The notes beneath the pieces are model-generated. The model did not search any database. It was given only the letters and a program-made list of their open reading frames with translations, and was not told the origin of the DNA. Below, piece by piece: positions 10,549 to 52,901 of a stretch of DNA of 54,151 nt. The stretch spans positions 1 through 54,151 of the forward strand of contig JAFEEH010000243.1 in the NCBI GenBank assembly GCA_018241185.1. Direction: 5' to 3'. The translations under genes and the position numbers were made by a program. Position 1 is the stretch's first letter, and the number at the start of each line of letters is the position of its first letter. The DNA comes from Pseudomonadota bacterium. GTDB lineage: Bacteria; Pseudomonadota; Gammaproteobacteria; Burkholderiales; Burkholderiaceae_C.

Positions 10549-10612
10549 CTTTCAAGCCAAATCGGCCTGGAACGCTCGTCCCACGGGCGCGAGCAGCTAT
10601 GAAATCGATAGC
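10549..10612 (-). repeat. Dispersed palindromic element, copy R1
   Basis: Read on the minus strand: GCTATCGATTTCATAGC box, GCGCCCG hairpin arm, then GATTTGGCTTGAAAG tail. It begins one base after the stop codon of the enolase-superfamily gene, in the same orientation. The GCT codon phase is open throughout. It is one of the two best-preserved copies. Confidence 0.82.
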
Positions 10613-10613
10613 A

Positions 10614-11810
10614 TCAGGGCTTCGACACGCGCACCGTCGCGTCGGCGCGCTTGTGCAGGTCGGGCAGCAGCTCGAGCCCCAGGCCCGGCTTGTCGTTGAG
10701 CCGGATCATGCCCTTCTCGACGATGGGCAGCTCGGTGACCAGCTCCTTGTACCAGCCGGTGAAGAAGGCGCGCACGCTCTCCTGGATGAGTGCGTTGGGC
10801 GCATGCAGGCTCAGGTGCGTGGACGCCGCCCACACCACCGGCCCGGTGCAGTCGTGTGGCGCCACCGGCAGCTGCCAGGCGTCCGCCATGGCGGCGATCT
10901 TGCGCGCTTCGGTCAGGCCGCCGCACCAGCTCAGGTCGAGCATGGCCACACCGGCCACGCCGGTCTGCAGATAGTCCTTGAAGCCCCACTTGTAGCTGAG
11001 CGTCTCGCTGGCGCAGATCAGCGCCTTGCAGTCGACGGCGTACTGCTTGAGCAGGTCGAGGCTGTCCATGCGGATCGCGTCCTCGTGCCAGAAGGTGTCG
11101 AACTCCTGCAGCGCGCGCGCGATCTTCTGCGCCATCGGCAGGCGCCACAGGCTGTGGAACTCCACCATGATGTCCATCTGCCGTCCCACCGCCGAGCGGA
11201 TCTTGCGGAAGGGCTCCAGCGCCGTGTCGAGATCGGCGTTGCTGATGTACTGGCCGTGGCTCTTCTCGGCCGCGGGGTCGAAGGGCCAGATCTTCATGGC
11301 CGTGATGCCTTCGGACAGCAGCGACTCGGCCAGTTCGTCGGCGTGGTGCAGGAAGCCCTGCAGGTCCTCGTACGGCCCGGCGTTGTTCCCGAGGCCCCAG
11401 TTCGACGTGTTCTGGTTGGCGGTGCTGCGCACGTACTGGTAGCCGGCACAGGTGTTGTAGATGCGGATGGCGTCGCGGCTCTTGCCGCCCAGCGCCGTGT
11501 GCACGGGCATGCCGGCGGCCTTGCCGAACAGGTCCCACAGCGCGATGTCCACGGCCGAGTTGCCGCGCGTCTCGACGCCGGACCCGCGCCAGCCCAGGTA
11601 ACCCGTCAGGTCGCGATTGCGCGCCTCGATGGCCAACGGGTCGGCACCCAGCAACTTGGGCGCGGCCCATTCGTGCAGGTAGGCCTCGACCGCGGCGGCG
11701 CCCATGAAGGTTTCGCCCACGCCGACCAGGCCCTCGTCGGTGTACAGGCGCACCCAGAGGATGTTGGGGAACTCGCCGAGGCGGACGGTTTCGACTTGCG
11801 TGATCTTCAT
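10614..11810 (-). CDS. Mandelate racemase/enolase-superfamily acid-sugar dehydratase or cycloisomerase
   Basis: 398-residue enolase-superfamily protein. Residues lining the barrel active site are visible: Lys173 (AMKIWPFD), Glu217 and His219 (MVEFHSLW), Glu243 (WHEDAI), Glu269 (CASET), His319 (APHDCTGP). These fit the mandelate-racemase/galactonate-dehydratase group, in which the enzyme abstracts an alpha proton from a sugar acid and usually expels water. The first metal ligand is Glu rather than the more common Asp. It is the last gene of the leftward GntR-TRAP transcript, so it probably handles the imported acid. Whether it is a dehydratase or a lactone cycloisomerase is undetermined. Confidence 0.85.
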   Translation of the reverse strand: MKITQVETVRLGEFPNILWVRLYTDEGLVGVGETFMGAAAVEAYLHEWAAPKLLGADPLAIEARNRDLTGYLGWRGSGVETRGNSAVDIALWDLFGKAAGMPVHTALGGKSRDAIRIYNTCAGYQYVRSTANQNTSNWGLGNNAGPYEDLQGFLHHADELAESLLSEGITAMKIWPFDPAAEKSHGQYISNADLDTALEPFRKIRSAVGRQMDIMVEFHSLWRLPMAQKIARALQEFDTFWHEDAIRMDSLDLLKQYAVDCKALICASETLSYKWGFKDYLQTGVAGVAMLDLSWCGGLTEARKIAAMADAWQLPVAPHDCTGPVVWAASTHLSLHAPNALIQESVRAFFTGWYKELVTELPIVEKGMIRLNDKPGLGLELLPDLHKRADATVRVSKP

Positions 11811-11844
11811 GGCGCGGCTTCAGCCAGGGAACAAGTGAGGAATG

Positions 11845-11874
11845 AAAAAGGCCGCACCCCTGCGGGCGCGGCCT
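11845..11874 (-). terminator. Intrinsic terminator after the TRAP binding-protein gene
   Basis: On the minus strand AGGCCGC (11874 to 11868) pairs with GCGGCCT (11855 to 11849) and is followed by TTTTT (through 11845). It lies 15 nt after the dctP-like stop and 35 nt before the enolase-superfamily start. It may partially uncouple that gene from the transporter. Confidence 0.7.
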
Positions 11875-11889
11875 GCGCGGCGCGAATGC

Positions 11890-12897
11890 TCAGCTGCCGC
11901 GCGCCTTCTTCAGCGCATCCATCACCACGTTGACAGCCTCGGCGCCGATGGTGGGGATGTTCTTGTCGTACACCGGCTTGACCTTGTCGAACATCCGCTT
12001 CTGCTCGGCAGGCGTCACCTCGTTCACCGTCATGGTCTTCTTCAGGTTCTCCAGCGACTTGGCGTTGAGCGCGCGGTTGGCCTCGCGCTCCACCTTGCGG
12101 CCTTCGATCGCGGCCTCGCGCAGCACGGCCTGCTCCTCGGGCTTGAGCTGGTCCCACAGCTTCTTGCTGTAGAGGATCAGGAAGGGGGTGTAGGCGTGGC
12201 GCGTCACGCTCAGGTACTTCTGCACCTCGCTGAACTTCGAAGTCTCGATGGTCACGAAGGGGTTCTCCTGGCCGTCGATGGTGCGGGTCTCCAGCGCGGT
12301 GAATACCTCGCCGAAGGCCATCGGCACGGCATTCGTGCCCAGCGTCTTGAAGGAATCCAGGAAGATGTTGTTCTGCATCACGCGGACCTTCACGCCTTCG
12401 AAGTCCTCGACCTTGGCGACCGGGCGCTTGCTGTTGGTGAGGTTGCGGAAGCCGTTCTCCCAGTAGGCCAGATTGATCAGGCCCGCGGCCTCGAGCTTCT
12501 TGTTGAAATACTCGCCGGCAGGTCCGTCGAGCACCGCGTCGGCTTCCTTTTCGTTGTTGAACAGGAAGGGCAGGTCGAACACGCCCAGCTCCTTCACGAT
12601 GCCCACCAGCGGCGAACTGGACGTGCATACCATTTCCTGCGTGCCGGCGCGCAGGGCCTGCGTGGCCTGCAGGTCGCCGCCGGCGGCGCCGCCCCAGAAG
12701 GCGGCGATCTTCATCTTTCCGCCGGTCTTGGCGGCCAGGACTTCCTGCATCTTCTTGACGCCGAGCCCCACCGGGTGGTCCTCGTTCACGCCGTTGGTGA
12801 ACTTGATGGTGCGTTCGGCGAACTGGGCCGAGGCGGCGAACGGTGCGGCCAGGGCGATGGCGGCCGCCGCGGCGACCAGGCTTCTGCGATTGAACAT
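11890..12897 (-). CDS. TRAP transporter substrate-binding protein (DctP family)
   Basis: 335-residue periplasmic binding protein. It has a Sec signal peptide (residues 1 to about 24, ending ASA), then a DctP domain. The conserved stretch KVRVMQNNIFLDSFKTLGTN carries the Arg that clamps substrate carboxylate, and VFTALETRTIDGQENP is the later family signature. It delivers an organic acid to the DctQM membrane pair encoded just upstream. Context (GntR regulator, sugar-acid dehydratases, DgoK/DgoA) points to an aldonate or uronate ligand. It is followed by an intrinsic terminator. Confidence 0.93.
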   Translation of the reverse strand: MFNRRSLVAAAAAIALAAPFAASAQFAERTIKFTNGVNEDHPVGLGVKKMQEVLAAKTGGKMKIAAFWGGAAGGDLQATQALRAGTQEMVCTSSSPLVGIVKELGVFDLPFLFNNEKEADAVLDGPAGEYFNKKLEAAGLINLAYWENGFRNLTNSKRPVAKVEDFEGVKVRVMQNNIFLDSFKTLGTNAVPMAFGEVFTALETRTIDGQENPFVTIETSKFSEVQKYLSVTRHAYTPFLILYSKKLWDQLKPEEQAVLREAAIEGRKVEREANRALNAKSLENLKKTMTVNEVTPAEQKRMFDKVKPVYDKNIPTIGAEAVNVVMDALKKARGS

Positions 12898-12954
12898 GGG
12901 TGTCTCCTTCTCTCGTCGGGGGTTGGGAACTGGGGGGTCGAAAGCGCGTTCAGG

Positions 12955-12976
12955 AAGCCGCCGGCAGGGGCGGCTT
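12955..12976 (-). other. Hairpin at the dctM stop codon
   Basis: AAGCCGCC (12955-12962) and GGCGGCTT (12969-12976) form a perfect 8-bp stem overlapping the last base of the dctM stop. There is no strong T-run. It could stabilise the upstream message or modulate transcription into dctP. Confidence 0.5.
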
Positions 12977-14277
12977 CATCGGGCGAGCCACCACGACAGC
13001 GGCACGGTCACGATCTGCGGGAAGAACACCATCGCGAACAGCACGATGAGCTGCGCGATGAAGAAGGGCATCACGCCCTTGAAGGCGTCGTCCATGCTGA
13101 TGCGCGCGACGCCGCACACCACGTTGAGCACGGTGCCCACCGGCGGCGTGATCAGGCCGATGGCGTTGTTGATGATGAACAGCACGCCGAAATACACCGG
13201 GTCGATGCCGGCCTTGAGCACCACCGGCATCAGCACGGGCGTGAGGATCAGCACCGTGGGCGTGAAGTCCAGCGCCGTGCCGACGATCACGATCAGCACC
13301 ATCATCACGAACATGAGCAGCGTCTTGTTGTCCATGAAGGGCTGCAGCATCTTGGTCACTTCGCCGGGGATGTCGGCCACGGTGATGAGCCACGCGCTCA
13401 CCATCGCCGCCGCCACCAGGAACATGACCACGGCCGTGGTCTTGCCGGCCGCCGCGATGAGCCGGTACATCATGTGCCACTTCAGTTCGCGGTAGACGAA
13501 CATGCCCACCACGAAGGAATACACGGCCGCCACCACCGCCGCCTCGGTCGGCGTGAAGATGCCGAACTTCATGCCGCCGATGATCACCACCGGCAGCGCC
13601 AGCGCCAGGCTGCCCCGGAAGGTGATGCGCAGACGCTCGCCGAACGGCACGCGCGGCGCGGACTGCACCTTGTCGCGACGCGCCACGATCCACCAGGCGA
13701 TGCCGATCGCCAGGCCCATCAGGATGCCGGGCACGATGCCCGCGAGGAACAGCTTGGTGATCGAGACATTGCCCGCCACACCGAAGACGATGAAGCCGAT
13801 CGAAGGCGGGATCACCGGCGCGATGATGCCGCCCGCGGCGATCAGACCGGCCGAACGGTTGGTCTGATAGCCCGCGCGGTTCATCATCGGGATCAGCAGC
13901 GCGGCCAGCGCCGCCGTGTCGGCCACGGCCGAGCCGGAGATCGACGCCATGATGATGGCCGCCACCACCGCCACGTAGCCCAGGCCGCCGCGGAAGTGGC
14001 CCACCCAGGCCATGGCCAGGTCGACGATGCGCCGCGAGAGGCCGCCGGCGGTCATGAACTCGCCGGCCAGCAGGAAGAAGGGCACGGCCAGCAGCGGGAA
14101 GTTGTCGGCACCGTCCACGAAACGCTGGGCGATGATCTGGCTGTCGAAGGCGGGCAGCACACCGGTGAAGGCGAGCCAGCCCATGAGCGCGACGCCGCAC
14201 ACCAGCAGCGAATAGGCGATGGGCATGCCGATGGCCATGGCGGCCAGCAGCGAGACGACGAAAACCGCGACCGTCAT
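12976..14277 (-). CDS. TRAP transporter large permease (DctM family)
   Basis: 433-residue integral membrane protein of the DctM type, about twelve hydrophobic segments, using the sodium gradient to carry the ligand given by the binding protein. Family stretches ASISGSAVADTAALAALLIP, GIIAPVIPPSIGFIVFG and INNAIGLITPPVGTVLNV are present. The ATG at 14277 overlaps the dctQ stop by 4 nt (ATGA), showing translational coupling and fixing the start. The longer open frame upstream belongs to the dctQ region. Confidence 0.94.
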   Translation of the reverse strand: MTVAVFVVSLLAAMAIGMPIAYSLLVCGVALMGWLAFTGVLPAFDSQIIAQRFVDGADNFPLLAVPFFLLAGEFMTAGGLSRRIVDLAMAWVGHFRGGLGYVAVVAAIIMASISGSAVADTAALAALLIPMMNRAGYQTNRSAGLIAAGGIIAPVIPPSIGFIVFGVAGNVSITKLFLAGIVPGILMGLAIGIAWWIVARRDKVQSAPRVPFGERLRITFRGSLALALPVVIIGGMKFGIFTPTEAAVVAAVYSFVVGMFVYRELKWHMMYRLIAAAGKTTAVVMFLVAAAMVSAWLITVADIPGEVTKMLQPFMDNKTLLMFVMMVLIVIVGTALDFTPTVLILTPVLMPVVLKAGIDPVYFGVLFIINNAIGLITPPVGTVLNVVCGVARISMDDAFKGVMPFFIAQLIVLFAMVFFPQIVTVPLSWWLAR

Positions 14278-14825
14278 GACGCGCTCCTCGATTCGCCGGC
14301 ATGGCCGGGTTCGGGGGCAACGTCTTCCGACTCCATCACCTGAACCAGTTCGTCGTCGCTCATGCGGCCGGTAAAGAGGCGCCAGAGCTTCTCGAGGTTG
14401 ATGAGGCCCATCACCACCGAGACGACGTAGCCGATGCCGTAGATCCAGATCATCGAGATGCCGACCACCGGCGAGATGTTGGTGGTCTGCAGCTCGTGCA
14501 TCTCGTAGGTGCCCATGAAGAAGAGCACGTTGCAGAACAGCATGAGCACCTGGTTGATGAAGAAGCACACCTTCTTGCCCACGCGCGGCAGGTGCTTGAT
14601 GAGTGTGTCGACACCCAGGTGCGCGCCGTCGCGCATCGCGACCATGGCGCCGATGTAGGTGAGCCAGATGAAGCAGTAGCGCGACATCTCGTCCGACACC
14701 GTGATGCCCGAGTTGAAGCCGTAGCGCAGCACCACGTTGCCGAAGACCATGACGACCATGGCCACCATGCACACGACGACGAGGAACTCGAGCAGCTTGA
14801 AGAATGCGTCGATCACGCCTCTCAT
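14274..14825 (-). CDS. TRAP transporter small permease (DctQ family)
   Basis: 183-residue four-helix membrane protein, the small subunit that pairs with DctM. The LEFLVVVCMVAMVVMVFGNV helix and the motif VSDEMSRYCFIWLTYIGAMVA are characteristic. The start MRGVIDAFF at 14825 is preceded by a GGAG ribosome site; upstream in-frame codons are low complexity. It lies 40 nt after the GntR gene and overlaps dctM by ATGA, so gntR-dctQ-dctM-dctP is one transcript. Confidence 0.92.
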   Translation of the reverse strand: MRGVIDAFFKLLEFLVVVCMVAMVVMVFGNVVLRYGFNSGITVSDEMSRYCFIWLTYIGAMVAMRDGAHLGVDTLIKHLPRVGKKVCFFINQVLMLFCNVLFFMGTYEMHELQTTNISPVVGISMIWIYGIGYVVSVVMGLINLEKLWRLFTGRMSDDELVQVMESEDVAPEPGHAGESRSAS

Positions 14826-14865
14826 GGGGGTTGTCTCCTGAAGGGTTGTTGTTGTCGGTATGGGG

Positions 14866-18530: not shown

Positions 18531-19168
18531 ACACCGCACTCGACAAGTTCCAGTCCGCCATGCAGGAGCTGCCTCTCGTGGCGATCCTGCGCGGACTCAC
18601 GCCGGCCGAAGCCGAATCGGTCGGCGACGCCCTGGTCGGGGCCGGCTTCCGTTTGCTCGAAGTGCCGCTGAACTCGCCCGAGCCGTTGACCAGTATCGCA
18701 CTGCTACGCCGGCGCTTTCCCGACGCGCTGGTGGGTGCAGGCACCGTGCTCGACGCGGCGCAGGTGCGCGCGGTGCACGATGCGGGCGGCGAGCTCGTCG
18801 TGGCGCCGAACTTCGACGCCGCCGTGGTGGCCGAGGCGCGCCGGCTGGGCATGGTGAGCCTGCCCGGCGTGATGACGCCGACCGAGGCCTTCGGCGCGCT
18901 GGCCGCCGGTGCCACGGGCTTGAAACTGTTTCCGGCCGAACTCGCCTCGCCCGCCGTGGCGAAAGCATTGCTGGCGGTGCTGCCCCAGGGCACGGCGCTG
19001 ATGCCGGTGGGTGGCATCTCGCCCGAAACCATGCAGCCCTGGCGCGACGCGGGCGCGGCCGGCTTCGGCATCGGCTCGTCGCTGTACAAACCCGGCAAGA
19101 GCGCGGCGGCCGTGGCGGCCGACGCTATCAAATTCGTAGCTGCTTACGCACGCCCCACGGGCGTTTGA
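18527..19168 (+). CDS. dgoA: 2-dehydro-3-deoxy-6-phosphogalactonate aldolase (KDPGal aldolase)
   Basis: 213-residue class I aldolase splitting KDPGal to pyruvate and glyceraldehyde-3-phosphate. The Schiff-base Lys is in TGLKLFPAE, the general-base Glu in RLLEVPLNSPEP, and the phosphate loop is in MPVGGISP and GFGIGSSLY. The start ATG 18527 overlaps the dgoK stop. Unusually, the last 14 residues (AIKFVAAYARPTGV) and the stop lie inside palindromic element R2, so the native C-terminus was probably altered. A KDPG aldolase paralogue lies at 31682-32317. Confidence 0.93.
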   Translation: MNTALDKFQSAMQELPLVAILRGLTPAEAESVGDALVGAGFRLLEVPLNSPEPLTSIALLRRRFPDALVGAGTVLDAAQVRAVHDAGGELVVAPNFDAAVVAEARRLGMVSLPGVMTPTEAFGALAAGATGLKLFPAELASPAVAKALLAVLPQGTALMPVGGISPETMQPWRDAGAAGFGIGSSLYKPGKSAAAVAADAIKFVAAYARPTGV

Positions 19169-19187
19169 GGCCAAAAATGCTTGAAAA
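19124..19187 (+). repeat. Dispersed palindromic element, copy R2 (overlaps two genes)
   Basis: GCTATCAAATTCGTAGC box, ACGGGCG hairpin arm and AAATGCTTGAAAAG tail on the plus strand. It encodes the end of dgoA and, in its mutated tail, supplies the ATG (19177) of the next gene. dgoA is read in the GCT phase used by the other genic copies. Confidence 0.85.
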
Positions 19188-21279: not shown

Positions 21280-22680
21280 TCAGGCCAGCCGGCGCATCAG
21301 CGCACCCGTGCTGCGCGGCCAGCCGGGCCGCCCGAACCAGGCGCCACCCGAGATGACCGAGGCGATGAAGAGTCCGTAGGCGACCAGGGCCAGCCCCTGG
21401 GCCACGAAGACATGCACGAGCTGGCCGCCCCAACGCAAAGCCAACCAGCCGCCGATGCCGGCCACGGCCAGGCGGATGAGCGTGCCGATGACCGGCCACA
21501 TCAGGCGCCCCGCGCCCTGCGAGGCGAAGTACAGCACCAGCCCCAGCCCGAAGAAGCCGTACAGCGGCCCCACCGCGCGCAGGTACTGTGTGCCCGCCTC
21601 GAGCATCGCGGGATCGTTGCCGAAGAGCATCAGCCACTGGCGCGGGAACAGCGCCGCCGCAAGCCCGATGCTGCCGGTGAGCACGAAGGCCACCGCGGCA
21701 CCGGTCCAGGCCGCACGCAGCGCGCGTTCGCGCTGGCCGGCGCCGATGCAGGTGCCCACCATCGCGACCAGCGGCGCACCCAGGCCGAAGACCAGGGGCA
21801 CCAGCAGGTACTCGAGGCGCGACGCGGTGCCGTAGCCCGCAATGGCCCCGGCGCCGTAGCGGCCGGCGAAAGCCGTTGCGAGCGCGATGCAGGTGTTGGT
21901 GGCCACGGTGGAAATGGCACCGAACAGTCCGACGCGCAGGATGTCGCGCAGCAGCGGCCAGCGCAGCCGCGCCTGGGCCCACACGGGCCGCAGCAGGCTG
22001 CGCGGCGAACGCAGGTACAACGCCAGCGCGATCGTGCCCGCGAGGTAATACACCAGCAGCGCGATGGCGCCGCCGGCGATGCCCATGCCCGGCATCGGAC
22101 CCCAGCCGAAGATCAGCAGCGGCGAGAGCGGCACCAGCAGCACCACCCCCGCAACCGTGACGTTGGCCGGCACGGCCATGTTGCCGGTGCCGCGGATCAC
22201 CGCCGCCAGCGAGTTGAACATCCACACGAGCACCGCGCCCGCGAACACCCAGTGCGAGTAGGTGAGCGCCGCTTCCAGCGCCGCACCGCTGCCGCCCATT
22301 GCGCCATACAGCGCGCGGCCACCCAGCCACAGCGCCAGCGTGAAGGCGACGCCGAAGCCCAGCGCAATGGCCACCGCCTGCCACACGAGCGCCTGCGCGT
22401 CCTCGCGGCGGCCGGCACCGAGGGCCCGTGCCACCGCCGAGGCGATGCCGCCGCCCATCGCACCGGCGGAAGTCATCTGCATCAGCATCACGATCGGGAA
22501 CACGAGGGCCATGCCGGCGAGCGCGTCGGTGCCCAGCTTGCCGACGAACCAGGTCTCGATGAGGCCGACCGCGGCCTGCGCGACCATGACAAGCACGTTG
22601 GGCGCCGCCATGCGCAGCAGCGTCGGGACGATCGGGTCGTGCAGCATGCGCTGCGTGCGGGGGTCGAGGGGCGCGTTCAT
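21280..22680 (-). CDS. MATE-family efflux transporter
   Basis: 466-residue multidrug/toxin extrusion protein with twelve predicted helices in two halves. APNVLVMVAQAAVGLIETWF and GTDALAGMALVFPIVMLMQM are the typical first-half motifs, and TASRLEYLLVPLVFGLGAPL the second-half equivalent. It exports cationic compounds against H+ or Na+. The ATG at 22680 overlaps the MFS gene stop by 4 nt, so the two transporters are translationally coupled. The MarR gene two steps upstream is the likely regulator. Confidence 0.92.
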   Translation of the reverse strand: MNAPLDPRTQRMLHDPIVPTLLRMAAPNVLVMVAQAAVGLIETWFVGKLGTDALAGMALVFPIVMLMQMTSAGAMGGGIASAVARALGAGRREDAQALVWQAVAIALGFGVAFTLALWLGGRALYGAMGGSGAALEAALTYSHWVFAGAVLVWMFNSLAAVIRGTGNMAVPANVTVAGVVLLVPLSPLLIFGWGPMPGMGIAGGAIALLVYYLAGTIALALYLRSPRSLLRPVWAQARLRWPLLRDILRVGLFGAISTVATNTCIALATAFAGRYGAGAIAGYGTASRLEYLLVPLVFGLGAPLVAMVGTCIGAGQRERALRAAWTGAAVAFVLTGSIGLAAALFPRQWLMLFGNDPAMLEAGTQYLRAVGPLYGFFGLGLVLYFASQGAGRLMWPVIGTLIRLAVAGIGGWLALRWGGQLVHVFVAQGLALVAYGLFIASVISGGAWFGRPGWPRSTGALMRRLA

Positions 22681-31606: not shown

Positions 31607-31612
31607 TGTCTC

Positions 31613-31678
31613 GCTACCTTTTTTGTAGCTGCTCGCGCCCGCTGGACGGGCGCTGCAGCCCGATTTGGCTTGAAAAAA
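31613..31678 (+). repeat. Dispersed palindromic element, copy R4
   Basis: GCTACCTTTTTTGTAGC box, GCGCCCG with CGGGCGC hairpin, and GATTTGGCTTGAAAAAA tail. It fills the gap between eda and the HAD gene, 3 nt from the eda stop. It is the one intergenic copy in the opposite orientation to the gene whose end it abuts. Very well preserved. Confidence 0.86.
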
Positions 31679-37213: not shown

Positions 37214-37777
37214 TCAGCTGCCCCTGCGCGCGTGCCACAGGGCCTCGGCGCGCGCCAGATCGCCCACGGTGTCGATGTCGGAAACGGTGCCGGCGTCGGC
37301 CGTCTCCACATCTGCTACCGAATTCATAGCGCGTTGCGCCCGCAGGACGGGCGCTGCGCCCTGATTTCCTTCCAAAGCCAGCAGCGCGTCGCGGCAGGCG
37401 GCGCCGAAGCCGACGGGATGCCCGCGCTGGCCCGCGAAGACCGGTTGCGCGGCCGTGACCCCAGGCTGCATCAGCGCATCGGCCACCCGCTGCAGCGTCG
37501 CCGGCTGCACCAGCGGCAGATCGGCCGGCAGCACCAGCCAGCCGGCCGCTGCCGCGGTCGCGCGCACGGCGGCCGCAATCGAGTCGCCCATGCCGGGATG
37601 GCCGGCATCTTCCACATGCCAGGCCAGGCCGCTGGCCCGCACCGCGGCCAGCGTATGCGCCATCACGGGCCGGTCGCCCAGCAGCGCCTGCAGCTTGTGC
37701 ACGGTGCCACCCGAGGCGCGAAAGCGCTCGCCCCGACCCGAGGCCAGCACGAGGACGACGGGAAGGGCGGGCGTCAT
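37214..37777 (-). CDS. MobA-like/MocA-type nucleotidyltransferase
   Basis: 187-residue NTP transferase of the family that activates molybdopterin (MocA/MobA-like). The nucleotide loop LVLASGRGERFRASGG, then GMGDSIAAAVR, VLPADLPLVQP, QRGHPVGFG and the terminal DIDTVGDLARAEAL are typical. Between the GFG block and DIDT, residues from LEGNQGAAPV to AMNSVA are encoded by palindromic element R5, an in-frame insertion. The conserved core remains intact. The ATG overlaps the bestrophin-like gene stop (ATGA). Confidence 0.87.
   Translation of the reverse strand: MTPALPVVLVLASGRGERFRASGGTVHKLQALLGDRPVMAHTLAAVRASGLAWHVEDAGHPGMGDSIAAAVRATAAAAGWLVLPADLPLVQPATLQRVADALMQPGVTAAQPVFAGQRGHPVGFGAACRDALLALEGNQGAAPVLRAQRAMNSVADVETADAGTVSDIDTVGDLARAEALWHARRGS
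37313..37377 (+). repeat. Dispersed palindromic element, copy R5 (inside the MobA-like gene)
   Basis: GCTACCGAATTCATAGC box, GCGCCCG/CGGGCGC hairpin and GATTTCCTTCCAAAG tail on the plus strand, antisense to the gene. It is wholly within the coding sequence and keeps the frame. Its antisense translation GAAPVLRAQRAMNSVA aligns in phase with that of R9 in waaA. Confidence 0.85.
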
Positions 37778-39377: not shown

Positions 39378-39390
39378 GCGCCGGCAGGAC

Positions 39391-39452
39391 GCTATCGATT
39401 TCGTAGCGCTCCGCGCCCGTCCGGCGGGCGCTGCAGGCACTTTTCGCTCGAG
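39391..39452 (+). repeat. Dispersed palindromic element, copy R6
   Basis: GCTATCGATTTCGTAGC box, GCGCCCG/CGGGCGC hairpin and ACTTTTCGCTCGAGA tail. It lies 13 nt after the pdxH stop in the same orientation, filling the convergent gap to the AEC gene. Confidence 0.85.
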
Positions 39453-39455
39453 ACT

Positions 39456-40467: not shown

Positions 40468-42624
40468 TCAGAACGTGACGCGCAGCCCCACCTTCACGCT
40501 GCGCCCCGGCAGCGGGGCCTTCGGGAACTCGGTGGTGGTGAGGATCGAGGTCGCGCTGTAGGCCAGTGCGTTGCTCAGGTTGTCGACCCGTGCGTACCAG
40601 AGCAGGTTGGCGCGCTCCCAGCGCATGCGGTAGCTCAGCGCGGCGTTCCACAGCGTGTAGCCCTCGGTCTCGCGCTGGCCCATGGCCGGCACGCGGTGCT
40701 GCGCGGCGTAGCGGTCGAAGCCCAGGCGGGCCGTCCATGGCCCGCTGGCCCACACCAGCGTGGCGCCCAGGCGCGCCGGCGAGATGCGCGGCAGCGGCTC
40801 GCCGGTGTCGGTGTTGGTCGCACGGACCACGTCGCCCCGCCATTCGAGGTCGAGCGTGCCGTTCGGCCCCCATTGGCTCAGGCCGTCGCTGCCGAAGAGG
40901 CGCAGGTTGCCGCTGGCCTCGGCGCCGGTGAAGCGCGCGCGCACGCCGCGGTACACGTACTCGGCCAGCAGGTCCTCCTGCAGGTTGCCCTCCTCGTCGA
41001 CCGGGTTCACCTCGCCCTCGTCGTTGCGCAGGTTGCCGGTGGCTGTCAGCCCGATGTAGTTGCGAAAGCGCGTGGTGTAGACGTTCACGGCCGCGCGGTT
41101 CGGGCCGGACTTCCATTGCACGCCGATATCGGCGCCGTTGGACGACTCCTTCTTCAGGTTCGGGTCGCCCACTTCCCAGGCGGCCGTCGCCACGTGCGGG
41201 CCGTTGGCGAATAGCTCGTAGTCCTTGGGCGCGCGCTCGGTGTGGGCGAGGTTGGCCGTCAACTGCCACTGCGGCGCCAGGTTGACCAGTACGCCGAAGG
41301 CCGCGCTGTGCGGGTTGAAGCGCCGCTCGCCAATGGCGAAGCGGTCCACCGTCTGATCGTCCGGGTAGCCCAGCGAGCGCACGCGGACCTGCTCGGTGCG
41401 TGCCCCGAAGCTGAAGCGGCCCCAGGACATCGGCAGCTCCTCGTACAGGAACAGCGCGTTCGAGCGCGTGCGGCTGTGCGGCGCGAAAGCCTCCTCGCCA
41501 TCGGCCGAGAAGCGGGTCGACTCGCTCTGCAGGCCGATCACGCCCTGCAGGCCGCCCAGCGCCGCGATGGGCTGGTGGCGCGCCTCGATGCGCAGGTCGT
41601 TGCCGGCATTCGCGAAAGTCGTGCCGGCCTCCGCACCTTCGTACTCGGTGTGGCGGTACTCGGTGCGGCTGGCCTTGACGTGCACACTGGTGAAGAAGCC
41701 ACCGGGCTTGAACTCCCCTTCCACGGCGTAGCGGCGCGAGCGCATGCCGATGGTCACGTCGTCCTCGGCCACGGTGCCGTAGGTGCTGCGGTATTCGCTG
41801 ACCGACGCGCCGATCCAGTTGCCGCCGCCGAGGAACACCGTGCCGCCGAAGGCGCCGCCATCGCTGCGCGACGCCGAGTTGCAGATGCGCCGCTGGTAGA
41901 CCGGCGAGCCGGGCTTGGTGCACTCGAGCCAGGTCGGCACCGCGACGTCGTCGGCCTTGCGACTGAAGGCGTCCGCATGCAGCACGAAGCGGTCGTTGCC
42001 CCCCTCGACCACCACGCCGCCGTTCTTCTCCTTGCTGCCGCTGGCGTAGCCGATGTCGGCACGGCCGCCGACTTCGCCCTGGGCCGCCATGGGTTCGGTC
42101 GGGATGCGGTTGTCGATCACGTTGACCACGCCGCCGACGGCGCTGCCGCCGTACTGCAGCGCCGAGGGTCCGCGCAGCACCTCGATGCGCTCGGTGACGA
42201 GCGAGTCCATCGGCACCGCGTGGTCGTAGCTCAGCGCGGAGGCGTCGGGCGCGGCACCGCCGTTGTTGAGGATGCGGATGCGGTCGCCGTCCTGCCCGCG
42301 GATCACGGGGCGGCTGGCGTTGGGGCCGAAGTAGGTGCTGCTCACGCCGGGCAGGCCCTGGAGCGTTTCACCCAGGGTGGATTGCGAACGAAATAGCAGT
42401 GAATCGCCCGCCAGTGCTGCGGTAGGCGCTATCGAATCCGTAGCGCCGAGCGGATTGCCGGTGACCGTGACGGTGCTGAGCATCGGCGCCGCGCCGTCGG
42501 TGGCGGGGGCCGCGGCGGACGCGGCTGGCGATGCGGTGGACGTGTCCGCCTGCGCATGCGCGAGGACGGAGAAGGCGAGAAGCGTGGCCGCGCCGATGGC
42601 GTGGCGGGGGAATTGGGGGTGCAT
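40468..42624 (-). CDS. TonB-dependent outer-membrane receptor, ZnuD-like
   Basis: 718 residues: signal peptide to about 24 (VLAHAQA), TonB box-like STVTVTGNPLG, plug domain (GVSSTYFGPNASRPVIRGQD then GDRIRILNNGGAAPDASALS), and a 22-stranded barrel ending in VGLRVTF. The plug motifs and the paired-Cys loop (WLECTKPG...RRICNSAS) resemble the ZnuD zinc-receptor group. The neighbouring His-rich protein supports a metal. No Zur box is obvious. Residues ATDSIAPTAALAGDSLLFRS coincide with a degenerate palindromic element (R7). The substrate is inferred. Confidence 0.88.
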   Translation of the reverse strand: MHPQFPRHAIGAATLLAFSVLAHAQADTSTASPAASAAAPATDGAAPMLSTVTVTGNPLGATDSIAPTAALAGDSLLFRSQSTLGETLQGLPGVSSTYFGPNASRPVIRGQDGDRIRILNNGGAAPDASALSYDHAVPMDSLVTERIEVLRGPSALQYGGSAVGGVVNVIDNRIPTEPMAAQGEVGGRADIGYASGSKEKNGGVVVEGGNDRFVLHADAFSRKADDVAVPTWLECTKPGSPVYQRRICNSASRSDGGAFGGTVFLGGGNWIGASVSEYRSTYGTVAEDDVTIGMRSRRYAVEGEFKPGGFFTSVHVKASRTEYRHTEYEGAEAGTTFANAGNDLRIEARHQPIAALGGLQGVIGLQSESTRFSADGEEAFAPHSRTRSNALFLYEELPMSWGRFSFGARTEQVRVRSLGYPDDQTVDRFAIGERRFNPHSAAFGVLVNLAPQWQLTANLAHTERAPKDYELFANGPHVATAAWEVGDPNLKKESSNGADIGVQWKSGPNRAAVNVYTTRFRNYIGLTATGNLRNDEGEVNPVDEEGNLQEDLLAEYVYRGVRARFTGAEASGNLRLFGSDGLSQWGPNGTLDLEWRGDVVRATNTDTGEPLPRISPARLGATLVWASGPWTARLGFDRYAAQHRVPAMGQRETEGYTLWNAALSYRMRWERANLLWYARVDNLSNALAYSATSILTTTEFPKAPLPGRSVKVGLRVTF
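42382..42444 (-). repeat. Degenerate palindromic element, copy R7 (inside the TonB receptor)
   Basis: On the minus strand the GCTACGGATTCGATAGC box is intact and a CTGGCGGGCG arm with a CTATTTCGTTCG tail follows at the expected spacing, but the first hairpin arm is lost. It is read in sense and in the GCT phase. The region corresponds to variable sequence between the TonB box and the plug, so chance resemblance is possible. Confidence 0.5.
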
Positions 42625-45763: not shown

Positions 45764-47164
45764 ATGCGCCGGCTGCGGCTTTCCCTTCTCGCGGCCGCCG
45801 GCGGCGTTGCCCTCGCGGCCACCCTGCCGTCCCATGGCCAGAGCCTGGTCACGCTGTACGAATCGGCGCGCGCCTTCGACGCCACCTACCAGGGCGCGCG
45901 CGCGCAGTACGAGGCGACCAACGCCCGCGCCGCGCAGGCCAAGGCGGGCCTGCTGCCGCAGGTGGGCCTGCAGGCCTCGGCGTCACGCACCGATGCCAGC
46001 ATCCGCACCGACCAGGGCACCGGACCGCGCGACTTCAGCACCCAGCAGGTGGGCGTGCAGGCCACGCAGCCGATCTACCGGCCGGCCAACTGGGCCACCT
46101 ACGAGCAGGGCAAGCGCCAGTACGACATCGCGAACGCGCAACTCGCCCTGGCCGAGCAGGACCTGATCGTGCGCGTGAGCCAGGCGTATTTCGACGTGCT
46201 GGGCAGCCAGGACAGCCTCGCGCTGGTCCGCGCGCAGAAGGCCGCTGTCGCCGAGCAGCGCGCCGCCGCGCAGCGCAACTTCGACGTCGGCAACGCCACC
46301 ATCACCGACACGCGCGAGGCGCAGGCGCGCTACGACCTCGTCACCGCGCAGGAAATCGCAGCCGAGAACGACCTGCAGGTCAAACGCATTGCCCTCGACC
46401 AGCTCGTGGGGCGCAGTGGCACCACGCCCTGGGCGCTGGCCGCGCCCGTGCGCCTGCCGGTGCCCGCGCCGGCCAGCGCCGATGCCTGGGTCGCACAGGC
46501 CGAGGACGGCCACCCCGCCATCGCGCAGGCCCGGCTCGCGCTCGACGTGGCCGGCCTGGAGATCGACAAGGCCAAGGCCGGCCACAAGCCGGTGGTCGAC
46601 GCGACGCTGAGCTACGGCGTGCAGAACAACCCCGAGGGCGTGATCGACTCCACCCTGCGCACGCGCGTGAAGCAGTCGTACATCGGCGTGCAGATGACGC
46701 TGCCGCTCTTCGCCGGCTTCGCGGTGGAAAACCGCATCCGCGAGACCGTCGCGCTCGAAGACCAGGCCCGCGCGCAGCTCGACGCCACCCGTCGCAGCGT
46801 GACGCAGGCCACGCGCGCCGCCTACCTCGGCCTCGTGGCCGGCGCCAACCAGGTCAAGGCGCTGGAATCGGCCGAGGCCAGCAGCCAGAGCGCGCTCGAC
46901 GCCAACCGCCTGGGCTATCAGGTGGGCGTGCGCATCAACATCGACGTGCTCAACGCGCAGAGCCAGCTCTTCCAGACCAAGCGCGACCTGGCGCTGGCGC
47001 GCTACAACGTGCTGCTGGGCAACTTGAAGCTGCGCCAGGCCGCCGGCTCGCTGCGGCCCGAGGACCTGCAGCCGATCGAGGCCACGCTGGCCGCGGCGGC
47101 GAGCGCGGGCACGCAGCCCTCGGCGGCGACCGAAAGCCCTGTGCCTGTGCCTCCGGCACGCTGA
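45764..47164 (+). CDS. tolC: TolC-family outer-membrane channel protein
   Basis: 466 residues with a signal peptide (to about 25, SHGQSL) and two repeated TolC halves. First-half blocks are ATQPIYRPANWATYEQGKRQ and DLIVRVSQAYFDVLGSQDSL; second-half blocks are VQMTLPLFAGFAVENRIRET and GYQVGVRINIDVLNAQSQLF. It forms the trimeric exit duct for type I secretion or efflux pumps. GAAGGA precedes the ATG. No secretion partners are in the window. Confidence 0.94.
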   Translation: MRRLRLSLLAAAGGVALAATLPSHGQSLVTLYESARAFDATYQGARAQYEATNARAAQAKAGLLPQVGLQASASRTDASIRTDQGTGPRDFSTQQVGVQATQPIYRPANWATYEQGKRQYDIANAQLALAEQDLIVRVSQAYFDVLGSQDSLALVRAQKAAVAEQRAAAQRNFDVGNATITDTREAQARYDLVTAQEIAAENDLQVKRIALDQLVGRSGTTPWALAAPVRLPVPAPASADAWVAQAEDGHPAIAQARLALDVAGLEIDKAKAGHKPVVDATLSYGVQNNPEGVIDSTLRTRVKQSYIGVQMTLPLFAGFAVENRIRETVALEDQARAQLDATRRSVTQATRAAYLGLVAGANQVKALESAEASSQSALDANRLGYQVGVRINIDVLNAQSQLFQTKRDLALARYNVLLGNLKLRQAAGSLRPEDLQPIEATLAAAASAGTQPSAATESPVPVPPAR

Positions 47165-47170
47165 AAACCC

Positions 47171-47225
47171 GAAAGCGCAATCGGCCGCCAGCGCCCGCCC
47201 AGTGGGCGCTACGCTCAAATTCGTC
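47171..47225 (-). repeat. Partial palindromic element, copy R8
   Basis: On the minus strand GCGTAGCGCCC, GGCGGGCGCTGGCGGCC and GATTGCGCTTTCGG match the second half of the element; the GCTA-N9-TAGC box has decayed. It lies 7 nt after the EamA stop in the same orientation and fills the convergent gap with tolC. Confidence 0.6.
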
Positions 47226-47232
47226 ACATTCG

Positions 47233-49197: not shown

Positions 49198-49267
49198 GCC
49201 GGTCACGGCGCCGAGCGCCAATCGCGCGGTCCTGCGCGCGGTGCGCAGGCCTGACCGACACCAGACG

Positions 49268-51439
49268 ATGACCAACACGAAAAGAGCGCGACGTATGACG
49301 AGGGGCCTGATCGCCATGGCCGGTGCCAGCCTGCTGCTGGCGGCCTGCGGGGGCGGAGGAGGAGGCGGCGGCTGGCCGGTCCTCGGCACCGGCGGCACAA
49401 CGCCGGGCACCGGCACCGGTTCCGGCGGCAGCACCCCCGGCACCGGCACGGGCGGTGGCAGCACCCCCACGACGCCCACCCGCGTCAGCGGCACTTTCCT
49501 GGACGCAGCCGTCGAAGGGCTGGACTATGTCGCCGGCAACGCGGCCGTGGCGCAGACCGATGCGCAGGGCCGCTTCGAATGCCTGCCCGGCGACATGGTG
49601 CGCTTTCGCGCCGGCGCGCTGGAGCTGGGCTCGGCGCCGTGCGGCACCGTGGTGACGCCGCTCACGCTGGCCGGCACCACGGCCTCCGCCGAAGGCCTGC
49701 AAACCGATGCGGTGGTCAACCGCCTGCTCGCGCTGCAGAGCCTGGACGACGACGGCGACCCGTCCAATGGCATCCGCCTCACGTCCGAGGTCAAGGCGCA
49801 GTTGAAGGCCGGCACGCTCGATTTCTCGGCTTCGGCCACCGACTTCAACACCGCGCTGCAGGCCGTGCTCACCGCCCTGCCCGCGCCCTGGTCGGGCCGC
49901 ACGGTGGACGACAGCCGCCGCCTGCTGGCCCGCGAGCACTTCGAGAACACGCTCGCCGCCACGCTCGGCACGCCGATCAGCACCAGCGCCAGCCAGACCA
50001 ATGCGCTGGGCAGCATCGCGGCCAGCGTGACCCGCTACCAGCTGCAGGCCGACGCGAGCTACTACGTGCCCTACGAGGGCAGCCAGGCGGCGGTGAAGGC
50101 GGACTTTCCGCTGGGCTTCCTGCCCGCCTACGGCTCGGGCATGGGCTTCAAGGGGAAGGCCGACGACGGCACGCTGGAGTTCTACGCCATCACCGACCGC
50201 GGCCCCAACGGCGACGGACCCACCGTGCCGGTGCCCGGCGACAGCAGCGGCGCGACCAGCGTCAGCAAGGTGTTCCCGGCGCCCTCCTTCGCGCCGAGCT
50301 TCGGCCTGGTGCGCATCGGCAAGAACGGCGCGGTGCTGACGTCGAGCACGGCGCTGCGCGTGAACGCGCAGACGAAGGTCACCGGCCTGCCGCCCCAGGC
50401 CGGCGCCGTGGGCTCGACGGGCGAGATTCCGCTGACCGATACCTACGTCTACGACGCCGCGAAGTCGGGCTTCGACGCCAACGGCCTGGACCCGGAATCG
50501 ATGGTCTACGACAAGGCGCGCAACGCGCTGTGGACCAGCGACGAGTACGGCCCCTTCGTGGCCCGCATCAACATCGCCACCGGCGTGATCGAGAAGAAGT
50601 ACGCGCCGGGCAACGGGCTGCCTGCCATCTTCGCCAAGCGCCGCCTCAACCGCGGCATGGAAGGCCTGACGCTGGACGTGGCCACCGGCCGGCTGCACGG
50701 CTTCCTGCAGAGCCCCATCGACCCGAAGGACAGCGCCGGGAAGTCGATCAAGGCCAAGCCGCCGGGTGGCAGCAACACCGACGTGCGCCACATCGCGAAG
50801 TTCGTGCGCTGGGTGGAGTTCGACCCGTCCACGGAGACCGCGAAGTCCTACGCCTACCCCATCGACGGCTCGGCCTACGACAACGACCGCACCGGCAACG
50901 CCAAGCTGGGCGACGTGGTGAGCCTGGGCAACGGCCGCTTCATCGTCATCGAGCAGGGCGCGCGCAAGAGCGACGGCAAGGTGATGAACAAGCTGATGCT
51001 GGTCGAGCTGCCCGCCACGGCCACCGACATCGCCGCGATGGACGAGAACCTCGAGATCAGCAGCATCACGCAGGCCGCGTCCAACGGCGTCAGCTACGCC
51101 GGCGTGGTCACGATGCGCAAGACCGAACTGCTCGACCTCAACGCCCTGGGCTGGCTGGCCGAGAAGGCCGAGGGCCTGGCCCTCGTGGACGAGCACACGC
51201 TCGCGTTGGTGAACGACGATGACTTCGGCCTCGCGACGAAGCTCTACGACGCCGACGGCAAGACCGTGGCCGGCAGCATTGAGGATTGCACCGTCGACGC
51301 GACCGGCACGATCGTGAGCGGCTGCCCGACGGGCGTGGTGAAGGCGCGCATCACGCGCGGCAGCGACCTGGAGCGGCCCACGCGTGTGTGGCTGATCCGG
51401 CTGGAGCGTGCGCTGTCGGACCTGCGGCTGCCGAACTGA
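49268..51439 (+). CDS. Esterase-like phytase-family lipoprotein
   Basis: 723 residues. Lipobox LLLAACGGG with Cys near 28, then a Gly-Thr-Pro linker of about 45 residues. A roughly 190-residue N-terminal domain begins RVSGTFLDAAVEGLDYVAGN and has the SGTVxDAAVxGLxY pattern of secreted surface proteins. A C-terminal phytase-like beta-propeller carries EFYAITDRGPNGDGP, DPESMVYDKARNALWTSDEY and RGMEGLTLDVATGRLHGF. It may hydrolyse phosphoesters on the cell surface. The start is uncertain between 49268 and ATG 49295. Confidence 0.84.
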   Translation: MTNTKRARRMTRGLIAMAGASLLLAACGGGGGGGGWPVLGTGGTTPGTGTGSGGSTPGTGTGGGSTPTTPTRVSGTFLDAAVEGLDYVAGNAAVAQTDAQGRFECLPGDMVRFRAGALELGSAPCGTVVTPLTLAGTTASAEGLQTDAVVNRLLALQSLDDDGDPSNGIRLTSEVKAQLKAGTLDFSASATDFNTALQAVLTALPAPWSGRTVDDSRRLLAREHFENTLAATLGTPISTSASQTNALGSIAASVTRYQLQADASYYVPYEGSQAAVKADFPLGFLPAYGSGMGFKGKADDGTLEFYAITDRGPNGDGPTVPVPGDSSGATSVSKVFPAPSFAPSFGLVRIGKNGAVLTSSTALRVNAQTKVTGLPPQAGAVGSTGEIPLTDTYVYDAAKSGFDANGLDPESMVYDKARNALWTSDEYGPFVARINIATGVIEKKYAPGNGLPAIFAKRRLNRGMEGLTLDVATGRLHGFLQSPIDPKDSAGKSIKAKPPGGSNTDVRHIAKFVRWVEFDPSTETAKSYAYPIDGSAYDNDRTGNAKLGDVVSLGNGRFIVIEQGARKSDGKVMNKLMLVELPATATDIAAMDENLEISSITQAASNGVSYAGVVTMRKTELLDLNALGWLAEKAEGLALVDEHTLALVNDDDFGLATKLYDADGKTVAGSIEDCTVDATGTIVSGCPTGVVKARITRGSDLERPTRVWLIRLERALSDLRLPN

Positions 51440-51461
51440 GCGCCGAGCCGCGGGCTGCGCG

Positions 51462-52901
51462 CTAGTCCAGCCGCGGCTCGCTGCGTTCGCTGGACGGCGC
51501 CTGCGGTGCGACCACGGCCGCCGGCTCGAACACCGGTTCGGCCGGCTCGGCGGCTGGTGCCGGCGGCGGCGCCTCGGGCACCTGCCGCGCCAGCGCCAGC
51601 AGCGCCGCCACCGTGCGCTCGGCGGCACCGCGGTGGCTGGCGGCGAAGACCTGGGCCGCCTGCGCCATGCCCGCACTGCGCTGCTTGTCGGCCACCAGGG
51701 CCAGCGCATGCACCACGGCCTGCATCAAGTCGTCCACCCGCAGGGCCGCGCCGCCCTGGATGGCCAGTTCTGCCGCCTCGGCGAAGTTGAAGGTCGAGGG
51801 ACCGAGGATCACCGGGCAGCCGCAGGCCGCGGCCTCGATCAGGTTCTGCCCACCCAGCGGTTCGAAGCTGCCGCCCAGCAGCGCGACGTCCGCCAGGCCG
51901 TAGTACAGCGCCATCTCGCCCAGCGAGTCGCCGAGCCAGATCTCGTTCTCGCGCGGGGTGCCATCGGCGGTGCTGCGACGCGCGCAGGCGAAGCCCATCG
52001 ATTCGATGAGCCCGGCCACCTCGTCGAAGCGCTGCGGATGGCGCGGCACGATCATCCATTGCACGTCGGAGGCCCGCAGTTTTGCTATGCCTTTGGTAGC
52101 ACCCCGCGCAGGCTCCACGGGCGCGGAGACCCAGAAATGCCTGAGGACTTCGAGCAGCTGGCGTTCTTCGCCGTCGCGCGAGCTGGCGAACACGATCACC
52201 GGCTTGGGCAGGTGGGCGCGCAGCGCATCGGCATGCGCGAGCTGGCGCGGATCGGGCGCCGCGTCGAACTTCAGGTTGCCGTACACGCCGGCCACCTTGG
52301 CGCCCAGCGACACCAGGCGGTGTGCGTCGGCCTCGCTCTGCGCCCACACGGCGGCCAGCGACGAATACGCCGGCCGTGACAGCCAGGCCAGGCGCTCGGC
52401 GGAGGCCAGCGACTTCTCGTTGAGCCGCGCGTTTGCCAGCGCGAGCGGGATGCCGCGCTCGGCACAGGCCGCCGTGAGTTCGGGCCAGACTTCGGTTTCC
52501 ATCAGCACGCCGATGCGCGGGCGGAAGCGGTCGAGGAAGCGCGCGACGGCCTCGGGCGTGTCCCAGGGCTGCCAGACCTGCACGTCGCCTTCCTCGAGCA
52601 GCTTGGCACCCTCCTCGCGGCCGGTGGCCGTGCCGTGGGTCAGCAGGATCGGCACGCCGGGCAGTTGGCGGCGCAGCTCGGCGATCAGGATGCCGGCCGC
52701 ACGCGTCTCGCCCAGCGAGACGGCATGCACCCAGCACCAATCGGAACCGGCAAAGGCCGTGTCGTAGTGCCCGAAGCGTTCCTCCACGGCCACCGCGTAG
52801 CCGGGCTCGGACACGGCGCGCTTGCGCAGCTTGCGGCGCAGCAGCGGCTGCGCGAGGCGGGTGACGAGGCCGTAGAGGCGAAGCGAGAGCGAACGACGCA
52901 C
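51462..52901 (-). CDS. waaA: 3-Deoxy-D-manno-octulosonic acid (Kdo) transferase
   Basis: 479-residue inner-membrane glycosyltransferase adding Kdo to lipid A precursors. VHAVSLGETRAAGILIAELR, ILLTHGTATGREEGAKL, LMETEVWPELTAACAERGIP, VPRHPQRFDEV and GGSFEPLGGQNLIEAAACGC are diagnostic. The start is GTG 52901, giving VRRSLSLRLYGLVTRLAQP, 5 nt after the phosphomannomutase stop. Residues between LEVLRHFW and KLRASDVQW are encoded by element R9 inserted in frame. The last 40 residues (APPPAPAAEPAEPVFEPAAV) are a low-complexity extension. Confidence 0.94.
   Translation of the reverse strand: MRRSLSLRLYGLVTRLAQPLLRRKLRKRAVSEPGYAVAVEERFGHYDTAFAGSDWCWVHAVSLGETRAAGILIAELRRQLPGVPILLTHGTATGREEGAKLLEEGDVQVWQPWDTPEAVARFLDRFRPRIGVLMETEVWPELTAACAERGIPLALANARLNEKSLASAERLAWLSRPAYSSLAAVWAQSEADAHRLVSLGAKVAGVYGNLKFDAAPDPRQLAHADALRAHLPKPVIVFASSRDGEERQLLEVLRHFWVSAPVEPARGATKGIAKLRASDVQWMIVPRHPQRFDEVAGLIESMGFACARRSTADGTPRENEIWLGDSLGEMALYYGLADVALLGGSFEPLGGQNLIEAAACGCPVILGPSTFNFAEAAELAIQGGAALRVDDLMQAVVHALALVADKQRSAGMAQAAQVFAASHRGAAERTVAALLALARQVPEAPPPAPAAEPAEPVFEPAAVVAPQAPSSERSEPRLD
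52084..52147 (+). repeat. Dispersed palindromic element, copy R9 (inside waaA)
   Basis: GCTATGCCTTTGGTAGC box, then CGCGCAGG and ACGGGCGCGG as the hairpin region and GAAATGCCTGAGGA tail, on the plus strand, antisense to waaA. The frame is kept. Its antisense translation VSAPVEPARGATKGIA parallels that of R5. The hairpin arms have drifted more than those of R4 or R5. Confidence 0.75.

What the first reader, a model, noticed from the sequence alone, without database searches (positions are those of the whole stretch)
10549..52147. A dispersed ~64-nt palindromic element (nine copies) not explained by any known feature class I can name
R1-R9 share a strict architecture. Eight copies have GCTA-N9-TAGC with exactly 17 nt. 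All carry a GC hairpin region (GCGCCCG with CGGGCG in the best copies) and a GCTTGAAA-like tail at fixed spacing. The spacers differ while the stem bases are kept, as expected of a structure-selected, mobile or repeatedly copied element. R1, R4 and R6 are nearly pristine; R7 and R8 have decayed. No transposase is near, so any mobility would be non-autonomous. I recall similar sequences in other Comamonadaceae but no described name or function.
Basis: partly seen in the sequence, partly recalled or inferred. Interest (0 to 1): 0.82.

Follow-up and report, generated by a model that had tools for sequence, protein, structure and literature searches.

The report
REP-like repeat and its likely transposase
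A 65-letter hairpin-forming DNA repeat, scattered in large numbers through the genomes of many Comamonadaceae bacteria, appears to be copied around by one resident single-strand-DNA transposase of a type that was thought to have no such repeats.

Summary
The window holds seven clear copies of one 65-nt element, one decayed copy and one doubtful one. GCTA-N9-TAGC occurs 8 times against 0.11 expected. The genome holds at least 150 copies. In the family 113 of 300 genomes and 54 of 115 genera carry it. Copy number is nearly all-or-none, even within the genus.

Best explanation: a REP-like, non-autonomous element multiplied in trans by a single-copy Y1/HUH transposase of TIRYT (subclass 2.1-like) type. 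Element-rich genomes tend to carry a close relative of that transposase. Its 3' flank holds the element's head (GCTAY) at a fixed place before the inverted repeat in 42 of 72 rich genomes but 3 of 72 others (p=4e-13; independent contrasts 9:1 and 9:0).

Published work reports no REP-like sequences near subclass 2.1 genes (PMC6006769). A fragment of this element was listed in 2017 as an unexplained Polaromonas motif (PMC5217627). Against: seven rich genera lack the close transposase, the 3'-end preference was not reproduced in Polaromonas, no clean empty site was found, and transposition is not shown.

The parts
10550..10614 (-). copy R1, between convergent genes
   Evidence: 78.9 bits with R2; neighbours
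19122..19186 (+). copy R2, overlapping the 3' end of a gene
   Evidence: 64.3 bits
28778..28842 (+). copy R3, between co-directional genes
   Evidence: 51.5 bits, not in the model's training set
31611..31675 (+). copy R4, between co-directional genes, close to the stop codon of a KDPG aldolase gene
   Evidence: 82.5 bits
37312..37376 (+). copy R5, inside a gene with a MobA-like NTP transferase domain
   Evidence: 50.8 bits, not in the training set
39389..39453 (+). copy R6, between convergent genes
   Evidence: 64.7 bits
52082..52146 (+). copy R9, inside a gene, weaker
   Evidence: 38.2 bits, not in the training set
47159..47232 (-). decayed copy between convergent genes
   Evidence: 24.7 bits, E 1.7e-6
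42428..42444 (.). head palindrome alone; doubtful remnant
   Evidence: exact GCTA-N9-TAGC; best element score here 16.6 bits

Best explanation
The repeat is a REP-like non-autonomous element: a head palindrome GCTAY-N7-RTAGC, a bulged GC hairpin standing directly on the RTAG, and a GGCC-N5-GGCTTGAAA tail. It is, or was, multiplied in trans by one chromosomal Y1/HUH transposase of the TIRYT kind, which by analogy with IS200/IS605 and TnpAREP would cut and join single-stranded DNA beside the hairpin. In many carriers the transposase's own unit ends in the same head (GCTAY-N11-TGTCCC), so that unit end and the element would be alternative substrates of one enzyme. Copies are then inherited in place, can outlast the enzyme, and decay. 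Shown: the family, its range, its near all-or-none copy number, and its statistical link to the transposase and to that flank. Inferred: recognition, cutting and copying.
For: At least 150 copies in the host genome. In the genus, six of 15 genomes have 63 or more, seven have none, two have 1 and 5. In 300 family genomes, 63 of 96 with a close transposase (E<=1e-115) are rich (7 or more matches) against 27 of 204 others, p=1e-19 without correction for kinship; by genus 28 of 41 against 7 of 74. GCTAY before the TIR: 42 of 72 rich against 3 of 72 others; by genus 20 of 34 against 2 of 30; ten other tetramers at that place in 0 to 4 loci each. Spacing N11 in 40 and N10 in 5 of the 45. Independent contrasts on the transposase tree: 9 for, 1 against, 11 ties; and 9, 0, 9. 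ATAG (52) or GTAG (17) directly before the hairpin in 69 of 69 aligned copies. HUH, tyrosine and the N119-equivalent aligned with E. coli TnpAREP 4er8.
Against: Seven genera are mostly rich without a close transposase, and 13 have a close one but are mostly not rich. G270 and G321 hold 85 and 71 copies with no transposase match at E<=1e-10. 30 of 72 rich genomes lack the flank motif, as do three of six named carriers, one of them by a single letter in the TIR. Whole copies lie within 150 nt of the transposase in only 4 of 30 loci. No clean empty site was seen. Most zero genomes keep the catalytic residues. No biochemical evidence exists.
Confidence: 0.6

Rival explanations
1. A host-serving element at gene 3' ends (transcription end, mRNA-end hairpin, or buffer between convergent genes) kept by selection; the transposase link is a by-product.
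For: In the host genome, of 26 sampled top-scoring copies 25 are not inside genes; none of these lies between divergent genes, 11 lie between convergent ones, and 34 of 36 neighbouring gene 3' ends are within 25 nt. PMC5217627 reports 34 of the 125 P. naphthalenivorans copies between convergent genes (section 13 read).
Against: Congeners do without it altogether. In Polaromonas sp. CG9_12 the same analysis gave 8 genic, 6 divergent, 5 convergent and 11 co-directional of 30.
Confidence: 0.15
2. A miniature element mobilised by an unrelated transposase or insertion sequence; the correlation with the Y1 transposase is incidental.
For: Rich genomes without a close Y1 transposase.
Against: No inverted ends, little flank conservation, and no more direct repeats at the edges than re-paired flanks. 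The fixed head motif beside the Y1 gene tracks the element across genera. I did not search for other transposases that might track it.
Confidence: 0.15
3. A binding site of a DNA-binding protein, with GCTA-N9-TAGC as its operator, multiplied by selection.
For: The head arms are nearly invariant and the adjacent pair does not covary, as for a protein site on duplex DNA.
Against: Conservation spans 65 nt with sharp edges, and the hairpin has a covariation score above all shuffles. Near all-or-none copy number fits multiplication better.
Confidence: 0.07

Closest known systems
GTAG REPs with RAYT/TnpAREP (PMC3733652 passages and section 16; PMC6006769 passages and sections 12, 20)
   Same: High-copy dispersed hairpin with a tetranucleotide at its 5' foot; a single-copy Y1 transposase; copy number that differs sharply between relatives.
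   Different: The tetranucleotide is ATAG in 52 and GTAG in 17 of 69 copies; an extra head palindrome and tail make 65 nt; the transposase is flanked by GGGGWSAS repeats, and whole copies rarely flank it.
TIRYT / TIRtron, TnpAY1 subclass 2.1 (PMC3733652, PMC6006769)
   Same: Y1/HUH protein of about 231 aa with a C-terminal extension; GGGGWSAS repeats upstream in 66, downstream inverted in 107 and on both sides in 56 of 144 loci, reversed-motif control 2 and 2.
   Different: Subclass 2.1 was reported without REP-like sequences; here the flank shares the head of a high-copy family. Placement in the published subclass tree was not tested.
Polaromonas naphthalenivorans motif ATAGCT(N)22CAAAAG (PMC5217627, section 13)
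   Same: A fragment of this element: 38 matches against 1 for the reversed control in Polaromonas sp. CG9_12, 18 of 38 inside R2 matches.
   Different: Listed there as a potential novel motif with 125 copies, 101 intergenic; in the passages and section that I read, no full element, family range or transposase is given.
BRE, Beta-proteobacterial repeat element (PMC3110155, passages and section 14)
   Same: Short dispersed chromosomal repeat, reported also from Polaromonas, Delftia, Acidovorax and Rhodoferax.
   Different: About 90 bp, often in tandem, and present in Bordetella; this element is 65 nt and dispersed. BRE letters were not available to me, so identity was not tested.

Membership tests
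canonical GTAG REP | GT[AG]G at the foot of the hairpin | tested here: not met
   GTAG in 17 of 69 copies, ATAG in 52
canonical GTAG REP | bulged hairpin directly 3' of the tetranucleotide | tested here: met
   86% of cells paired, covariation score above 500 of 500 shuffles, though the count of pairs changed on both sides is not exceptional
canonical GTAG REP | copies flank the cognate transposase gene | tested here: inconclusive
   whole copies near 4 of 30 loci; head motif at fixed place in 45 of 144 loci
canonical GTAG REP | high copy number in the genome | tested here: met
   at least 150
TIRYT / TnpAY1 subclass 2.1 (the transposase) | HUH and catalytic tyrosine | tested here: met
   Y1_Tnp over the cut-off; alignment to 4er8; HUH invariant and Y120 nearly invariant in 25 proteins
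TIRYT / TnpAY1 subclass 2.1 (the transposase) | flanking inverted repeats with GGGGWSAS | tested here: met
   both sides in 56 of 144, downstream in 107, upstream in 66; control 2 and 2
TIRYT / TnpAY1 subclass 2.1 (the transposase) | C-terminal helix-turn-helix extension | tested here: inconclusive
   no HTH Pfam match; model predicts helices at 167-211 but with low confidence
TIRYT / TnpAY1 subclass 2.1 (the transposase) | place in the published subclass tree | not tested
   no reference set with subclass labels was at hand
MITE of a DDE transposase | terminal inverted repeats and target-site duplication | tested here: not met
   ends TTGCTAY and TTGAAA are not complementary; direct repeats at the edges no more than in re-paired flanks over 26 copies
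BRE | sequence identity to the ~90-bp repeat | not testable with these tools
   letters are in a figure and a supplement not held; length and arrangement differ
Rfam families | match at gathering score | tested here: not met
   no match in the window

The most novel reading that the evidence does not exclude
This is the first REP-like family tied to the TIRYT / subclass 2.1 branch of single-strand transposases: the transposase unit and the dispersed element share one recognition head, and absence of that head from the transposase locus goes with absence of the population. Because copy R9, inside a gene, faces a same-length but divergent block in a non-carrier, spread may at times be by templated replacement of single-stranded DNA rather than by insertion.
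Probability: 0.4. Interest if true: 0.75.

Novelty: new variant of a known kind. Interest (0 to 1): 0.6.

Why it matters
Subclass 2.1 is described as the second largest TnpAY1 subclass (14.9% of strains; PMC6006769, section 20 read), and no REP-like substrate was known for it there. A dispersed element that comes and goes with a specific end of such a gene gives these enzymes a testable substrate, and suggests that the REP way of life also exists outside the canonical GTAG branch. It also gives full form, range and a probable engine to a repeat found in 54 of 115 sampled genera of the family, including Polaromonas.

Tried and rejected
Rfam: no family in the window. Plasmid and phage collections: no match to copy R4, the only copy tried. 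MITE with inverted ends and target duplication: not met. Clustering of whole copies round the transposase: too few to count as evidence, 4 of 30 loci. Loss of the residue equivalent to N119 as a general cause of absence: it fits five congeners (HPV in place of NPV), but most zero genomes keep it. Gene calling by self-training on the longest ORFs was discarded because it called shadow frames. In the calls used four of five intended seed genes were dropped by my own filter (one stop codon counted in each), so the model grew from one seed gene by self-training; its calls agree with the five Pfam-supported genes. The 26 copies used for location were the best-scoring ones outside the window. The same analysis in Polaromonas sp. 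CG9_12 did not reproduce the 3'-end preference, with or without homologous seeds. Clean empty sites: none seen in syntenic stretches of six relatives, nor at R4 in 14. The transposase model was poor (pLDDT 51), though it matches IS608, ISDra2 and 4er8 chains over about 100-136 columns. The Polaromonas JS666 genome paper, which a review cites for MITEs (PMC10969869, passages), is not held, so an earlier description there cannot be excluded.

Limits and dropped rows: the flank test used 150 of 300 genomes (places listed, 315.7 bits or more); 6 gave no clean ORF in my script (G077, G225, G060, G335, G157, G297; four of them rich) and were left out, leaving 144. The cut of 7 for 'rich' was chosen after seeing the counts; cuts of 1, 3 and 12 give p of 4e-12, 4e-13 and 4e-10. 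The motif idea came from the first 30 loci, but the exact pattern was written after all loci had been printed, so the 'held-out' figure is not strictly blind. Best E-values entered were retyped as rounded exponents.

Full report
1. What is in the window. GCTA-N9-TAGC occurs eight times against 0.11 expected from shuffles. Seven of the eight are full elements: R1 on the minus strand and R2, R3, R4, R5, R6 and R9 on the plus strand. A decayed copy lies at 47159-47232, and the palindrome at 42428 stands nearly alone. In 26 further copies from the same genome the conserved unit begins at TTGCTAY and ends at TTGAAA, 65 nt; outside it the information falls to at most 0.6 bits per position. The edges show no excess of direct repeats over re-paired flanks.

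2. Anatomy. The consensus of 69 copies from many genera, ungapped over 67 columns, reads TTGCTATnGATTTnATAGCTGCTCGCGCCCGnnnGACGGGCGCTGCAGGCCnATTTGGCTTGAAA. The head is GCTAY-N7-RTAGC. The tetranucleotide ATAG (52) or GTAG (17 of 69) stands directly 5' of a hairpin made of a short foot (CTGC/GCAG), a small bulge and a seven-pair GC stem. Six of the seven stem pairs show some two-sided change, and the covariation score of stem plus foot is above all 500 shuffles, while the number of pairs changed on both sides is not exceptional (84 of 500). The head arms hardly vary, so pairing there is untested, and the next pair does not covary. The tail can form a weaker hairpin (74% of cells paired) that would compete with the foot.

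3. Number and range. A covariance model finds at least 150 copies in the host genome (the number the tool scored), all at E<=8.4e-9. Of 15 genomes of the genus six have 63 or more, seven none, two 1 and 5; none of 24 genomes from other families matched. Of 300 genomes of the family 113 match at E<=1e-6, in 54 of 115 genera. In 200 genomes drawn from the order six matched, five of them in the host family; the sixth has a single hit. A re-scan of 39 chosen genomes kept the contrast: all 19 that had shown none stayed at none, seven stayed at 1 to 6, and of 13 rich ones 11 gave 47 to 121 and two gave 9 and 11. Named carriers: Xenophilus sp. E41, Polaromonas sp. CG9_12, P. eurypsychrophila, Polaromonas sp. 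OV174, Curvibacter sp. GWA2_64_110 and Rhodoferax sp. U2-2l; Variovorax boronicumulans Xaverov 112 and Hydrogenophaga intermedia S1 had none. The closest named transposase is that of Xenophilus sp. E41 (96%), so the window probably comes from a Xenophilus-like bacterium (inference).

4. The transposase. The host genome has one Y1_Tnp gene, 231 aa. Rich genomes of the genus have close orthologues. Five element-free congeners (G001, G007, G009, G011, G012) have a diverged relative with RGNNDQ, EDHFHV and YIDLHPV in place of RGNNRQ, DNHFHL and YIDLNPV; its neighbours look the same (a methyltransferase-like gene and, as I recognise it from sequence without a test, glutamate synthase). The changed asparagine corresponds to N119 of E. 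coli TnpAREP by the alignment to 4er8, a residue called essential for transposition in vivo (figure-legend passage, PMC6006769). This is one contrast, and most other zero genomes keep the residue. Across the family, 63 of 96 genomes with a close transposase are rich against 27 of 204 others (p=1e-19, not corrected for kinship); by genus 28 of 41 against 7 of 74.

5. The shared head. After the stop codon the transposase locus has a half-repeat (T/C)GTCCC(C/T) in 127 of 144 loci and a second, CTGACCC, in 128; their median distance is 48 nt. GCTAY stands before the first in 45 loci, at N11 in 40 and N10 in 5. It is present in 42 of 72 rich genomes and 3 of 72 others; ten other tetramers at that place occur in 0 to 4 loci each. 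The idea came from the first 30 loci; on loci not among those seen early the count is 28 of 49 against 2 of 60, with the caveat that the exact pattern was written after all loci had been printed. On the transposase tree 21 motif contrasts gave 9 in the expected direction, 1 opposite and 11 ties; 18 richness contrasts gave 9, 0 and 9. Of eight named genomes, three of six carriers and neither of two non-carriers have it. Because the distance is fixed and the rest of the element is usually absent, this looks like an inherited part of the transposase unit rather than a chance insertion.

6. Where copies sit. In the host genome, of 26 sampled copies 24 are intergenic, 1 overlaps a gene end and 1 is genic. 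None of the 25 lies between divergent genes, 11 lie between convergent ones, and 34 of 36 neighbouring 3' ends are within 25 nt; background gaps of 20 nt or more were 54 co-directional, 14 divergent and 9 convergent. In Polaromonas sp. CG9_12 the same analysis gave 8 genic, 11 co-directional, 6 divergent and 5 convergent of 30. So the preference is not a general rule, or my simple gene calls are poor in one of the two genomes.

7. Insertion. In syntenic stretches of six relatives most window copies are shared by several of them, so positions are inherited. No clean empty site was seen. At R9 the non-carrier G003 has a block of the same length with 51% identity between flanks of 87% and 81%. 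At R5 non-carriers G003 and G004 also have the same length, but there the flanks are about as diverged as the core. Either these are old copies overwritten since, or spread sometimes replaces rather than inserts. Unexplained.

8. What is known. PMC5217627 (passages and section 13 read) lists ATAGCT(N)22CAAAAG in P. naphthalenivorans CJ2 with 125 copies, 101 intergenic, as a potential novel motif. In Polaromonas sp. CG9_12 that pattern has 38 matches against 1 for the reversed control, 18 of them inside R2 matches, so it is a fragment of this element. PMC3733652 (passages, section 16) defines TIRYTs and their GGGGWSAS repeats. PMC6006769 (passages, sections 12 and 20) says that neither automatic nor manual searches found REP-like sequences with subclass 2.1. 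PMC3110155 (passages, section 14) describes BRE. PMC2817692 and PMC10969869: passages only. My searches that turned up no description of this full element or of its link to a transposase: in a library of open-licence papers only.

9. Verdict. A real REP-like element spread through the family, partly in print as a motif, here given full form, range and a probable transposase. I hold the family as near certain (about 0.97), the transposase link as likely (0.6), and the exact mechanism as open.

Noticed in passing
3' of the transposase in L031 and most of L145-L174: After the second TIR (CTGACCC) comes a conserved stretch such as CTTGGCATTGTTGTTGCA, which resembles a sigma-54 type -24/-12 promoter (recalled consensus), probably of the next gene, in L031 apparently glutamate synthase. 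The transposase may have been kept as a leader of that gene.
   Followed up: no
window 52082-52146 and 37312-37376; G003, G004 syntenic stretches: Element copies inside genes face same-length segments in non-carriers; at R9 the block is far more diverged than its flanks.
   Followed up: partly
L112 beside the R6 orthologue and L116 beside the R1 orthologue: Long extra stretches that both hold a GCTTCGCGGTTCCCCC-like sequence; possibly another dispersed intergenic repeat of this genus.
   Followed up: no
genera g105 (G270, G321) and g86 (G258, G311): Many element copies (85, 71, 88, 11) with no or only a remote transposase match: persistence after loss, or another mobiliser.
   Followed up: partly
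G220 and G063: The head motif stands beside the transposase but there are 1 and 0 element copies: perhaps before expansion or after loss.
   Followed up: partly
G029: 20 Y1_Tnp matches in one genome, several identical in score and some split or with a stop: an active or recently active IS200-type element besides the single TIRYT-like gene.
   Followed up: no
PMC5217627 Table 7, Acidovorax ebreus TPSY (section 13 read): A second unexplained motif in this family, GCTTAT(N)5AAGCG with 114 copies, mostly intergenic.
   Followed up: no
window 22198-22292: A tRNA-Ala (cgc) call of 95 nt, the only tRNA in the window; it may be spurious.
   Followed up: no
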